The notes under the pieces were generated by a model, which had not been told where the DNA came from, made no database searches, and saw only the letters and a program-made list of their open reading frames with translations. The translations under genes were made by a program, and so were the position numbers. Shown piece after piece: positions 3,265 through 50,892 of a stretch of 64,000 bases of DNA (the stretch's first letter is position 1; each line of letters opens with the position of its first letter). The stretch lies in contig NZ_CP011388.1 in NCBI RefSeq assembly GCF_001644605.1, forward strand, positions 1,365,001 through 1,429,000, given 5' to 3'. The stretch comes from Paenibacillus swuensis. GTDB lineage: Bacteria > Bacillota > Bacilli > Paenibacillales > DY6.

Positions 3265-3533
3265 ACCGCGCACCTCTCATTGATCGTTGCGATCCGAGCG
3301 TTACTCCTATCGACGGCTCAAATCAGGCAACCCTCCGGCACATGGAACTTCCTGCTTACGGCTGCTTCCTTCCGGACCTGACCGGGTTCACAAGCTTCCA
3401 TTGCGGAGGACCCGACTCTCAACACCACGTGTAAAAGTCGACCTCACATCACAAGACCTCTTCGAGGAATTGTGTCCCGCTGTAGCGGATTGCGGGTTAC
3501 AGGGCACCGCTACCTCCCCACCTAGCACGGTAA
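3265..3533 (-). ncRNA. ffs: Signal recognition particle RNA (scRNA, long Bacillus type)
   Basis: RNA scaffold of the signal recognition particle, which pairs with Ffh for co-translational targeting. The minus strand begins with CCGTGCTAGGTGGGGAGGTA and carries the domain IV apical motif GGTCAGGTCCGGAAGGAAGC with its GGAA loop. It ends near GGTGCGCGGTAC, which pairs with the 5' end (3263-3274 against 3521-3530). About 270 nt is the length of the Bacillus scRNA with an Alu-like domain. The 5' end fits the promoter at 3539-3567. The exact mature ends are not determined. Confidence 0.96.
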
Positions 3534-37441: not shown

Positions 37442-37732
37442 TCATTCCTCCTGATTAATAGATAGACCCATTAATACCCACTAATTTTATAGGGTTTATT
37501 GGATATAGAGATCATACCAAGAGTTGATGCACCTTGAAATGTCAATCTGGGTGTTCCTTTATTTGTCATTTTAGGTGTCCATCCGCACAGCGTAAGAAAA
37601 CCTCTATCGAGCGAGGTCTCTCAGGGTAGGCGGCCGTGTTCTTGGCTCTGTTGGAAACTACAGAGTTCGCGCGCGGAGCTGGATCATGTTGCTGGCTGGG
37701 TCAACTACCACGTAATAAATGCATTTCAGCGT

Positions 37733-37824
37733 CGATGCTGGGTTATCCCCAAGAATCAGGTGAACATTATATTCGTTTCGATGCTGGGTTATCCCCAAGA
37801 ATCAGGTGAAAATGCTATCCGTTC
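37733..37824. repeat. Two tandem 46-bp units, left arm of copy A
   Basis: Units start at 37733 and 37779, exactly 46 bp apart, each beginning CGATGCTGGGTTATCCCC and AAGAATCAGGTGAA. They diverge in their last ~14 bp. Confidence 0.9.
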
Positions 37825-38068
37825 TTTCCAAAAAAATTTGTAGTAATTAACAAATAACTTAGTTATTGGGATTAATCCAACATCATTTAAACTCATGTCA
37901 GTCCTTCTGTTCGAGTTCCTTTCGTTCATTATGGTTACAGAAAGCATAACGCTTGCGACACATTAAATTACATTTGCGATTCTGTTCTTTGTTAGAAGAA
38001 ACGAGCAATTTTTTATATTTCCTTCTCCACATTTTCCATATATCACTGCATTGCCTACTTCTATCACA

Positions 38069-38195
38069 CCACTGAGCCTTCGGGATAACCCAGCATTCCA
38101 GTTCTTCGATCATACCACTGAGCCTTCGGGATAACCCAGCATTCCAGTTCTTCGATCATACCACTGAGCCTTCGGGATAACCCAGCATTCCAGTT
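38069..38195. repeat. Three tandem 46-bp units, right arm of copy A
   Basis: Units start at 38069, 38115 and 38161, each beginning CCACTGAGCCTTCGGGATAA and CCCAGCATTCCAGTTC. The first two are identical over 46 bp except at the junctions; the third stops after about 35 bp. The core is the reverse complement of the left-arm core. Confidence 0.92.
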
Positions 38196-38255
38196 TAACT
38201 AAACAAACCTAGTTATCACCCATAATTTATATACTTTCTAATATATTAAAAAAAA

Positions 38256-38277
38256 GAGCAAGGCCTAAGCCCTGCTC
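38256..38277 (-). terminator. Terminator of speB
   Basis: Minus strand GAGCAGGGC-TTAG-GCCTTGCTC (one mismatch) followed by eight T. It begins 20 bp beyond the right border of repeat copy A. Confidence 0.8.
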
Positions 38278-38293
38278 CCCCACAACGTATATT

Positions 38294-39163
38294 TTACTTC
38301 ACAAATCCAAGCAGCATTTCGCGAATCAGCTTGGCAGCCACAATTTGTGTTTGCTCGCTATGGTCGTAGACCGGAGCCACTTCCACCACATCACAGCCCA
38401 CCACGTTAGCACCGGATGCGGCGATCGCATGCACAGCGCCCAACAGTTCCTTGGACGTGATGCCGCCGGCTTCCGCCGTGCCTGTGCCCGGCGCCGCGGA
38501 CGGATCCAGGACGTCGATGTCAATTGTCACGTACACTGGACGGCCTTCAAGCTCAGGCAACGCCTGCTTCAACGGCTCCAACACTTCGAACGGGAAGAAG
38601 TTGATGTTCTCGCGTCCGTACTTGAACTCCTCGCGAGAGCCCGAGCGAATGCCGAACTGATAGATGTTCTTGCCTCCCATCATCTCCGCCGCCTTGCGAA
38701 TCGGCGTAGAGTGGGACAGCGGTTCGCCTTCATAATTCTCGCGTAGATCCGCATGCGCGTCGATATGAATGATGGCGAGATCCGGATACTTCTTGTAAAC
38801 TTCTTGCAGCACCGGCCAAGTTACCAGATGTTCGCCGCCCATGCCGACCGGGAATTTCCCGTCCGACAACAATCCGCTCACGTACTCCTGAATAATATCC
38901 AGGCTGCGTCCCGCGTTGCCGAAAGGAAGCAACAGATCGCCAGCATCAAAGTAAGTGATTTCTTCCAGACTCTTGTCGAGATACGGGCTGTATTCTTCCA
39001 GTCCAATCGATACCTCGCGAATCCGGGCAGGTCCGAACCGGGAACCCGGACGGAACGATACCGTGTAGTCCATCGGCATGCCGTAAATGACCGCTTTGCT
39101 GCTCGCATAGTCGTCAGAGCTTAAGATGAAGACGTTGCCTGAGTATGTTTGATCCAAACGCAT
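38294..39163 (-). CDS. speB: Agmatinase
   Basis: Hydrolyses agmatine to putrescine and urea, with two manganese ions. At 289 residues it has the ureohydrolase signatures GMGGEHLVTWP, IIHIDAHADLRENYEG and VTIDIDVLDPSAAPGTGTAEAGG, with all His/Asp ligands present. It lies 12 bp after speE, the same pair and order as in B. subtilis. AGGAGG precedes the ATG and overlaps the end of speE, so the two are an operon making putrescine and spermidine. Confidence 0.96.
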   Translation of the reverse strand: MRLDQTYSGNVFILSSDDYASSKAVIYGMPMDYTVSFRPGSRFGPARIREVSIGLEEYSPYLDKSLEEITYFDAGDLLLPFGNAGRSLDIIQEYVSGLLSDGKFPVGMGGEHLVTWPVLQEVYKKYPDLAIIHIDAHADLRENYEGEPLSHSTPIRKAAEMMGGKNIYQFGIRSGSREEFKYGRENINFFPFEVLEPLKQALPELEGRPVYVTIDIDVLDPSAAPGTGTAEAGGITSKELLGAVHAIAASGANVVGCDVVEVAPVYDHSEQTQIVAAKLIREMLLGFVK

Positions 39164-46762: not shown

Positions 46763-46853
46763 GCTGTTTCACGAAAAAAAATGTGACTAATTTGTGACTA
46801 AAGGAGGATTTACGAAAAAAAGATCGAATTGTAGGAGAGGAAAAAATAATTAA

Positions 46854-46978
46854 ACTTATCTTTGCCGAGTTCCCGCAAGGGAAACGGGGGATCCATTTTT
46901 GGGTGAATTGACCTCGCAACAAAGTGGTCATAGGGAACCTTCTCACCGAACCCTCAAGCTAACCTCGTAGGCACCGGA
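46854..46978 (+). promoter_or_regulatory. c-di-AMP riboswitch (ydaO/yuaA class)
   Basis: The leader carries the ydaO hallmarks: TTTGCCGAGTTCCCGC, AACGGGGGATCC, TTGGGTGAATT, TAGGGAACCTTCT, CCGAACCCTCAAGC and AGCTAACCTCGTAGGC, with TGCC/GGCA closing the aptamer. This class senses the second messenger cyclic di-AMP and is generally an OFF switch before cell-wall hydrolase and ion-transport genes. The NlpC/P60 gene starts 15 nt later. No clear terminator lies between aptamer and gene, so control may be at the ribosome site (GGAAGGGG, 46976-46983), which directly abuts the closing stem. Confidence 0.92.
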
Positions 46979-46993
46979 AGGGGCATCTTTGTT

Positions 46994-50526: not shown

Positions 50527-50840
50527 TAAGAAAACCTCTATCGAGGCTGGATCATGTTGCTTGGTCAACTGCCAAGTATGATTGTATTTCAACACCGATG
50601 CTGGGTTATCCCGAAGAATCAGGCAAAAATAATATCCGTTCTTTTCAAAAAAACACTTGATACAAGAGCATTTGTTTGGTATTCTATAACATATTAAGAA
50701 CGCTTGTTCCCATTTTATGGGTGATGAAGTGAGGATTATGTCTACTTGTGAAGTAACTTTCGATCATACCACTGAGCCTTCGGGATAACCCAGCATTTCA
50801 GTCCAAATAAGGTTCAGCAACACCCCATAATTTATATACT
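50527..50840. repeat. Dispersed repeat element, copy B (314 bp)
   Basis: Short copy of the element at 37593. It has the same left border (50527-50545) and right border (50824-50840), and one unit per arm. The arms form a perfect 19-bp inverted repeat, ATGCTGGGTTATCCCGAAG at 50598-50616 against 50778-50796. Between the arms is about 160 bp of AT-rich sequence with no protein gene. As with copy A, a minus-strand gene starts on its left (cupin) and the terminator of a minus-strand gene lies 13 bp to its right. It occupies most of the 460-bp gap. Confidence 0.8.
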
Positions 50841-50852
50841 ATATATTAAGAA

Positions 50853-50892
50853 AAGGACCAGAAAGCTCTCTCACGAGCAGCTTCCGGTCCTT
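50853..50892 (-). terminator. Terminator of the ABC exporter gene
   Basis: Minus strand AAGGACCGGAAGC/GCTTTCTGGTCCTT with one mismatch, followed by TTCTTAATA. It lies 8 bp after the gene. Confidence 0.75.

What the first reader, a model, noticed from the sequence alone, without database searches (positions are those of the whole stretch)
37593..38235. Unknown two-copy repeat element built from inverted arrays of 46-bp units
Copy A (37593-38235) and copy B (50527-50840) share both borders, the left block GGATCATGTTGCT, the core ATGCTGGGTTATCCC and the right tail, in the same orientation. In A the left arm has two direct 46-bp units and the right arm three inverted ones; in B there is one per arm, forming a perfect 19-bp inverted repeat. 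There is no transposase, no terminal inverted repeat and no obvious target duplication. In both cases the element sits between the 5' end of one minus-strand gene and the terminator of another. This could be a non-autonomous mobile element with subterminal hairpins, an RNA with a long stem, or a protein-binding array. The unit number varies between copies, which suggests slippage or selection for copy number.
Basis: seen in the sequence. Interest (0 to 1): 0.72.

Follow-up and report, generated by a model that had tools for sequence, protein, structure and literature searches.

The report
Dead SOS-controlled transposase with repeat arrays
The two repeats are shortened copies of a widespread bacterial element whose gene makes a transposase-like protein that has lost its cutting site, carries DNA-damage switches in its promoter, and sits between arrays of what was once its own recognition sequence.

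Summary
Copies A and B are internally deleted members of a family with ~1.4-kb full-length members in the same genome. Those encode a ~302-aa IS1595-like protein with zinc ribbon, HTH and RNase H fold but no catalytic triad: the second Asp is missing in 72 of 72 members tested and present in 4 of 4 ordinary relatives. Eight own copies show mean dN/dS 0.12. The repeat core TATCCC-N6-TCAG derives from the terminal inverted repeat of ordinary IS1595 relatives, multiplied into inward-facing arrays: 280 sites here against 2 control sites; around 80 homologous genes 194 of 196 sites face inward. LexA-type boxes precede 73 of 80 homologs and 14 of 14 own copies examined, and this genome's lexA. Copies lie beside intrinsic terminators. 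Best reading: an SOS-controlled, catalytically dead transposase that binds its amplified ends, REPIN-RAYT-like in organisation but from an unrelated protein family. Binding, induction and function are inferred. The paper searches made showed no description.

The parts
37601..38246 (+). Copy A: internally deleted element, left border CCTCTATCGAG, right border ...TATACTTTCTAATATAT
   Evidence: 18-copy comparison
37744..37805 (+). Copy A left array: TATCCC-N6-TCAG at 37744-37759 and 37790-37805 (46-bp units)
38072..38179 (-). Copy A right array: CTGA-N6-GGGATA starting at 38072, 38118 and 38164 (46-bp units)
37819..38022 (+). Degenerate remnant of the dead-transposase gene (61% identity to residues 181-246, 4 in-frame stops)
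   Evidence: G000:C1:1402819-1403022
38247..38281 (-). A/T tract and intrinsic terminator of the arginase-family gene 38294-39163, reading into the element
   Evidence: stem 13, loop 4; gene
50535..50846 (+). Copy B: internally deleted element
   Evidence: sequence
50607..50622 (+). Copy B left site TATCCCGAAGAATCAG
50772..50787 (-). Copy B right site CTGAGCCTTCGGGATA
50698..50709 (+). LexA-type SOS box GAACGCTTGTTC kept from the gene's promoter
50738..50766 (+). First nine codons of the dead-transposase gene; the deletion joins TTTCGATCA here to nearly the same letters in the right-array unit
   Evidence: sequence comparison by eye
50527..50534 (.). Left copy of the candidate 8-bp target duplication TAAGAAAA
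   Evidence: not significant over nine copies
50847..50854 (.). Right copy of the candidate 8-bp target duplication TAAGAAAA
   Evidence: not significant over nine copies

Best explanation
Copies A and B are deletion derivatives of a family of elements built around a catalytically dead relative of IS1595 transposases. SHOWN by sequence: the protein keeps the zinc ribbon, HTH and RNase H fold but lacks the catalytic residues, with a tree consistent with one loss before the family spread through Paenibacillus, Cohnella and Ammoniphilus; it is under purifying selection; its gene carries LexA-type boxes; it is flanked by inward-facing arrays of a site derived from the lineage's terminal inverted repeat (TATCCC-N6-TCAG plus a clade-specific outer half); such arrays also stand alone across the genome, mostly between genes, often next to intrinsic terminators. 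INFERRED: DNA damage frees the gene from LexA; the protein binds the arrays and, as transposases do, brings the two inward arms together, but cannot cut. Arrays change in unit number by slippage or unequal exchange and lose the gene by deletion between short repeats, as in B. Binding at the 3' ends of genes would act as an SOS-controlled roadblock or bridge. How the type-1 copies were dispersed is open: their borders lie roughly 80-130 bp outside the arrays, so simple end-to-end IS1595 transposition does not explain them.
For: Homology and fold: zinc ribbon E 6e-10; 59 of 59 aligned relatives match NF033547 and PF12760; AlphaFold model of L102 pLDDT 90.2; RNase H core against HIV integrase Z 8.6, rmsd 3.2, 103 aligned, and ISCth4 transposase Z 8.4, rmsd 4.1, 168 aligned. 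Dead site: D at the second position in 0 of 72, at the first in 4 of 72; 4 of 4 intact rows have both. Seven intact rows lie on one side of a branch, 100/100, in a 65-row tree. Selection: dN/dS 0.055-0.197 over 28 pairs of 8 own copies; 0.12-0.17 in the 7 of 9 flank-matched cross-species pairs with measurable dS. Motif: upstream 113 inward vs 1 outward, downstream 81 vs 1, reversed control 0, 80 loci; genome count 280 vs 2; the 14 densest of 99 genomes all have a homolog. The motif is a terminal repeat: in intact relatives L180 CGTGGCTATCCCCTTAACTCAG, L165 TTTGATTATCCAACTAGCTCAG and L271 TCTGATCATCCCACTAGCTCAG. SOS boxes: 73 of 80 vs 0.57 (shuffled) and 0.75 (flank windows) expected; five before the own lexA, one before a Y-family polymerase gene. 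Terminators: 13 of 18 copies vs 35 of 1000 random windows (score 12 or more); relatives, downstream, 20 of 64 reading inward vs 3 of 64 outward.
Against: No binding, expression or function was measured. The recA promoter of this genome shows no exact box. 19 of 72 dead rows have some D or E within two columns of the second catalytic position, and a Glu of the YLxEF motif is conserved (51 of 59), though intact relatives share it. The link between motif density and gene is modest outside the densest genomes (median 3.7 vs 2.4 per Mb, p = 2e-4); G023, G030 and G036 have 10, 6 and 6 matches to the protein but only 13, 6 and 6 exact motifs. 6 of 78 dead loci show no exact motif on either side; of the three of them searched for inverted repeats, two have variants (L115, L169) and one (L121) shows none. 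Only one of the intact terminal repeats (L180, right copy) has the exact TATCCC-N6-TCAG; the others are variants, and for L276 no convincing terminal repeat was found. Target duplications are not significant. Low dN/dS in a multi-copy family could also reflect past mobility.
Confidence: 0.72

Rival explanations
1. Purely selfish decay: an ordinary IS1595 family and its MITE-like derivatives that lost activity; the arrays are fossils with no present role.
For: A, B and several other copies are deleted or carry stops; derivatives keep terminal-repeat sites as MITEs do.
Against: The second catalytic Asp is missing in all 72 dead rows tested while 75 of the 80 matched stretches (two of them intact relatives) have no in-frame stop, dN/dS is ~0.12 within the genome and 0.12-0.17 between species at shared loci, and SOS boxes are kept.
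Confidence: 0.15
2. Still mobile by a non-canonical chemistry: the protein cuts DNA with other residues, or is an adaptor that recruits an active nuclease in trans, and A and B are mobilised in trans.
For: 18 alignable type-1 copies with shared borders; exact 8-bp AT-rich repeats at B and at 1009k, the length IS1595 elements make; strong placement beside terminators.
Against: In the RNase H part the only columns with 60% or more D/E in A3 are the two of the YLDE motif, whose Glu intact relatives share; the 15 PF12762 matches in this genome all fall on dead-family genes; borders lie outside the terminal repeats; dS between copies is 0.15-0.55, so copying is not recent.
Confidence: 0.2
3. Dominant-negative immunity: the dead protein occupies terminal repeats of active IS1595 relatives and blocks their transposition; SOS control matches the SOS boxes of the active elements.
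For: Related core site and the same kind of SOS box in intact and dead lineages.
Against: Intact-type and dead genes occur together in at least two genomes (G037, G097, read by hand; depletion not formally tested); array amplification is not needed for repression.
Confidence: 0.1
4. A structured RNA or a transcription-termination device made of two opposed arrays.
For: Strong folding of B (z -3.85 and -3.53 on the two strands); position at gene ends.
Against: Folding follows from any inverted repeat; no Rfam match; several solo arrays have exact sites on one strand only (FFFFFFF at 663 kb, RRR at 898 kb).
Confidence: 0.06

Closest known systems
REPIN-RAYT systems (REP-associated tyrosine transposases; PMC2817692, PMC3116915, passages read)
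   Same: A transposase-derived gene flanked by inverted copies of a short, mostly extragenic repeat that is also dispersed through the genome, with repeat flavours that go with the gene type.
   Different: RAYTs are IS200/IS605-type tyrosine enzymes that keep catalytic residues, are single-copy and have palindromic REPs. Here: RNase H/IS1595 lineage, catalytic residues lost, eight full-length copies of 90% identity or more in one genome, a non-palindromic site in tandem arrays, SOS boxes.
IS1595 family insertion sequences (PMC8101967, PMC12561309, passages read)
   Same: Protein homology, zinc ribbon, related terminal-repeat sequence, single gene.
   Different: No catalytic triad; terminal repeats multiplied into arrays; type-1 borders lie outside the repeats; some loci shared between species.
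MITEs
   Same: A and B are short non-coding deletion derivatives of a coding element.
   Different: The parent transposase lacks its catalytic site; no simple terminal inverted repeat at the borders; placed beside terminators in one orientation.
DDE-lost Merlin/IS1595 proteins of protists, suggested domestication (PMC8101967, passages read)
   Same: Conserved IS1595-domain proteins without the DDE motif.
   Different: Eukaryotic; no association with dispersed arrays is mentioned for them in the passages read.

Membership tests
IS1595 insertion sequence family | Transposase homology (Zn_ribbon_IS1595, IS1595 transposase models) | tested here: met
   59 of 59 match PF12760 and NF033547, 38 of 59 match PF12762, at E 0.01
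IS1595 insertion sequence family | DDE-type catalytic residues | tested here: not met
   First Asp in 4 of 72, second in 0 of 72; both in 4 of 4 intact relatives
IS1595 insertion sequence family | Terminal inverted repeats at the element ends | tested here: inconclusive
   Terminal-repeat-like sites flank the gene inward on both sides (53 of 80 loci with exact sites on both), but type-1 borders lie outside them; a diverged TATC-N8-TCAG stands near the left border in 5 of 18 copies and the right border in 0 of 18
IS1595 insertion sequence family | 8-bp target duplication | tested here: inconclusive
   Exact in 2 of 9 copies; permutation p = 0.11
REPIN-RAYT | Transposase gene flanked by inverted repeats that are dispersed in the genome | tested here: met
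REPIN-RAYT | IS200/IS605-type tyrosine (HUH) transposase | tested here: not met
   IS1595 zinc ribbon and RNase H core instead
REPIN-RAYT | Catalytic residues conserved | tested here: not met
   (residues of its own lineage)
REPIN-RAYT | Short palindromic repeat | tested here: not met
   The site TATCCC-N6-TCAG is not a palindrome
MITE | Non-coding internal-deletion derivative of a coding element | tested here: met
   A and B against full-length copies
MITE | Mobilised in trans by an active transposase | not testable with these tools
   The PF12762 matches in this genome all fall on dead-family genes
LexA/SOS regulon | GAAC-N4-GTTC/T operator at the promoter | tested here: met
   73 of 80 homologs, 14 of 14 own copies examined; same boxes at own lexA and a Y-family polymerase gene; none exact at recA
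LexA/SOS regulon | Induction by DNA damage, dependent on LexA | not testable with these tools
   needs RNA measurement
Structured non-coding RNA | Match to a described RNA family | tested here: inconclusive
   No Rfam match at gathering score over A and B or in seven other loci

The most novel reading that the evidence does not exclude
A DNA-damage-inducible chromosomal system in the order of Paenibacillus: a transposase that gave up catalysis, perhaps once and long ago, was kept for its DNA-pairing ability, and now binds amplified copies of its ancestral ends (up to 280 sites, in dozens of clusters near gene 3' ends and terminators) during the SOS response, blocking or bridging them. It would be an independent counterpart of REPIN-RAYT built on a different enzyme class.
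Probability: 0.35. Interest if true: 0.88.

Novelty: new variant of a known kind. Interest (0 to 1): 0.76.

Why it matters
A puzzle of REPIN-RAYT systems is why a transposase that no longer spreads itself is kept with its repeats. Here an unrelated transposase lineage shows a similar arrangement with its catalytic residues lost, which argues against ongoing transposition by its own chemistry as the simple answer. There are hundreds of family members to compare, loci shared between species, and an SOS promoter signature that suggests when the protein acts. Because these genes match the 'IS1595 family transposase' model, routine annotation would hide the group.

Tried and rejected
Structured RNA: Rfam over the window and seven family loci gave nothing for A or B. 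Group IIC introns came to mind (recalled) because they also target terminators; no Rfam intron match in those calls. Defence: no PADLOC match for two proteins. Target duplications: tested on nine copies, not significant. Foldseek alone was weak (best E 0.027, ISCth4 transposase); VIA gave Z 8.6 and 8.4, and the tool warns that Z of 7 to 8 is common without clear relatives, so the fold claim rests also on sequence homology. Dominant-negative immunity: read by hand, no obvious exclusion of active relatives. Plasmids and phages: 272 and 2 records matched; the 15 and 2 rows shown were under 30% identity, and the annotated plasmid rows are called IS1595-type transposases; the other 257 plasmid records were not inspected. 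Papers: seven searches listed nothing that by title or abstract describes catalytically dead IS1595 proteins with arrays, or SOS boxes at IS1595 genes; one search was for REPIN-RAYT. Only listings were seen, except for passages in PMC12561309, PMC8101967, PMC3116915, PMC2817692, PMC4234289 and PMC11442139. Corrections made on the way: I first noted that both intact-triad loci among the 80 lacked the motif; searches show that L180 has one, overlapping the end of its match, in its terminal repeat. I also first wrote that no acidic residue is conserved in the RNase H part; one search shows the Glu of YLxEF is.

Rows dropped or chosen: 5 of 80 loci with in-frame stops left out of the catalytic alignment, and 2 truncated ones from the catalytic-column counts; one search leaves out L165 and L180 (78 of 80 used); one search uses 9 of 18 copies, those whose borders looked legible; one search gives no ratio for 2 of 9 pairs (dS saturated); L276 was put with the intact rows of the tree by reading its sequence. 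The own-genome stretches were partly chosen around known sites, so they are not a random sample.

Full report
Observation. Both copies are as described. A carries two direct 46-bp units and three inverted ones; B carries one site per arm with a perfect 19-bp inverted repeat. The core 15-mer, with up to 2 mismatches, occurs 168 times in the 5.01-Mb genome against 4 for the reversed pattern, so A and B belong to a large family.

Full-length members. Eighteen members of this type were compared. Some are ~1.4 kb and contain one gene. A search of the own genome found 8 full-length copies and one 5'-truncated copy of that gene (90-100% identity to the query), 6 diverged paralogs with open frames (46-60%), and fragments, including one inside copy A with 4 stops. 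Copy B keeps the promoter region and first nine codons; its deletion junction falls in letters shared with the right-array unit.

The protein. It matches the IS1595 zinc ribbon (E 6e-10) and weakly the IS1595 DDE domain; 59 of 59 aligned relatives match NF033547 and PF12760, 38 of 59 PF12762. Aligned with ordinary IS1595 relatives, the first catalytic Asp is kept in 4 of 72 and the second in 0 of 72, against 4 of 4 intact ones; 19 of 72 have some D or E within two columns of the second, and the stretch after it is deleted. In the RNase H part the only columns of A3 with 60% or more D/E are the two of the YLDE motif, whose Glu (51 of 59) intact relatives share. A model of L102 (pLDDT 90.2) keeps the RNase H core: HIV integrase Z 8.6, rmsd 3.2, 103 aligned; ISCth4 transposase Z 8.4, rmsd 4.1, 168 aligned. 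In a tree of 65 proteins the 7 intact rows form one side of a branch (100/100; midpoint root only), consistent with a single loss of the site; the seven own-genome rows form one clade (99/95), a lineage-specific expansion.

Selection and age. Among 8 own copies dN/dS is 0.055-0.197, mean 0.116, with dS 0.15-0.55: not fresh copies. Several pairs of loci in different species share both flanks. Nine such pairs were compared; in the seven with measurable dS, dN/dS is 0.12-0.17. The outer half of the site is similar within most pairs, by eye, while the number of exact sites differs in 7 of 9.

The repeat. Its general form is TATCCC-N6-TCAG preceded by a clade-specific outer half. Within 1.5 kb of the 80 genes there are 113 upstream sites facing inward against 1 outward, 81 downstream inward against 1, and none for the reversed control; 53 of 80 have exact sites on both sides. 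Genome counts: 280 here against 2 control sites; in 34 relatives with a match to the protein the median is 3.7 per Mb, in 64 without 2.4 (p = 2e-4; control not different, p = 0.39), and the 14 densest genomes all have a match (the matches include intact relatives). Against a simple rule, G023, G030 and G036 have matches but few exact motifs. In the own-genome stretches examined there are 47 multi-site clusters; of the 34 with exact sites on both strands, 32 have all F sites before all R sites, usually with near-constant unit spacing within an arm. Most multi-site solo arrays carry, by eye, an outer half of a resident paralog's class. A second genome (G071, 210 sites; 3 genes) shows the same layout in the places listed.

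Origin of the repeat. Intact-triad relatives have terminal repeats of this form: L180 CGTGGCTATTGCCTTCACTCAG / CGTGGCTATCCCCTTAACTCAG, L165 TTTGATTCTCCAGTTAGCTCAG / TTTGATTATCCAACTAGCTCAG, L271 TCTGATCATCCCTTTGGCTCAG / TCTGATCATCCCACTAGCTCAG, and the G073 insertion sequence TTTGAATATCAAGTTGTTTCAG. Copies of the last, 97-99% identical in 5 of 6 fetched, are flanked by AT-rich direct repeats such as TAAAATGA (read by eye). For L276 no convincing repeat was found. The arrays are thus multiplied ancestral transposase ends, which makes the protein the expected binder (inferred).

SOS control. The B. subtilis LexA operator is GAAC-N4-GTTC (PMC4234289, passage). GAAC-N4-GTTY-type boxes lie within 150 bp upstream of 73 of 80 homologs (shuffled 0.57, flank windows 0.75) and of 14 of 14 own copies examined. 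In this genome five such boxes lie within 180 bp before the LexA domain match and one stands just before a Y-family polymerase gene; recA shows none. Intact relatives L165 and G073 (by eye) carry boxes too, so the control probably predates the loss of catalysis.

Placement. In 13 of 18 type-1 copies an intrinsic terminator (score 12 or more) lies within 190 nt outside the right array and reads into the element; 1 of 18 has one on the other strand; random windows 35 of 1000. Around relatives (score 13 or more), downstream terminators read inward in 20 of 64 and outward in 3; upstream 9 of 61 and 1; random 9 of 1000. In 0.86 Mb of own sequence, partly chosen around known sites, 119 of 152 exact sites lie outside predicted genes (86% coding), and clusters avoid divergent gene pairs (1 of 27, against 104 of 450 background gaps).

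What is not explained. Type-1 borders lie roughly 80-130 bp outside the arrays, with only a diverged terminal-repeat-like TATC-N8-TCAG near the left end (5 of 18) and none at the right, so end-to-end IS1595 transposition does not account for the dispersed unit. B and 1009k have exact 8-bp AT-rich repeats at their borders, but the set as a whole is not significant.

Verdict. Structural identity (deletion derivatives of a dead-transposase element with terminal-repeat arrays): about 0.93. SOS control: about 0.85 on sequence grounds. Function as an SOS-induced array binder or bridge: about 0.4. It works like REPIN-RAYT in organisation but fails that family's defining enzyme features, and it fails IS1595's catalytic feature, so I file it as a new variant of the kind 'transposase-derived protein kept with its dispersed ends'.

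Noticed in passing
window 46853-46988 (+): c-di-AMP riboswitch (ydaO/yuaA leader), Rfam 70.9 bits.
   Followed up: no
window 3266-3530 (-): Bacterial large SRP RNA, Rfam 199.8 bits.
   Followed up: no
own genome, about 3.2-5.0 Mb: Few places with the exact type-1 15-mer were listed in this third of the chromosome (one, at 4.2 Mb, of 23 places seen); the listing was cut, so the bias is unproven.
   Followed up: no
L064 1237-1357, L065 2591-2711, L074 1190-1341, L078 1246-1509: Short-unit tandem repeats (6-11 bp) stand beside the dead-transposase genes in several genomes; they may reflect slippage or gap repair at these loci.
   Followed up: no
L265-L270 (G073): An ordinary, apparently recent IS1595 insertion sequence with SOS-type boxes in its promoter: six copies fetched, five of them 97-99% identical, AT-rich direct repeats at the borders. 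SOS-controlled IS1595 elements may be general in this order.
   Followed up: partly
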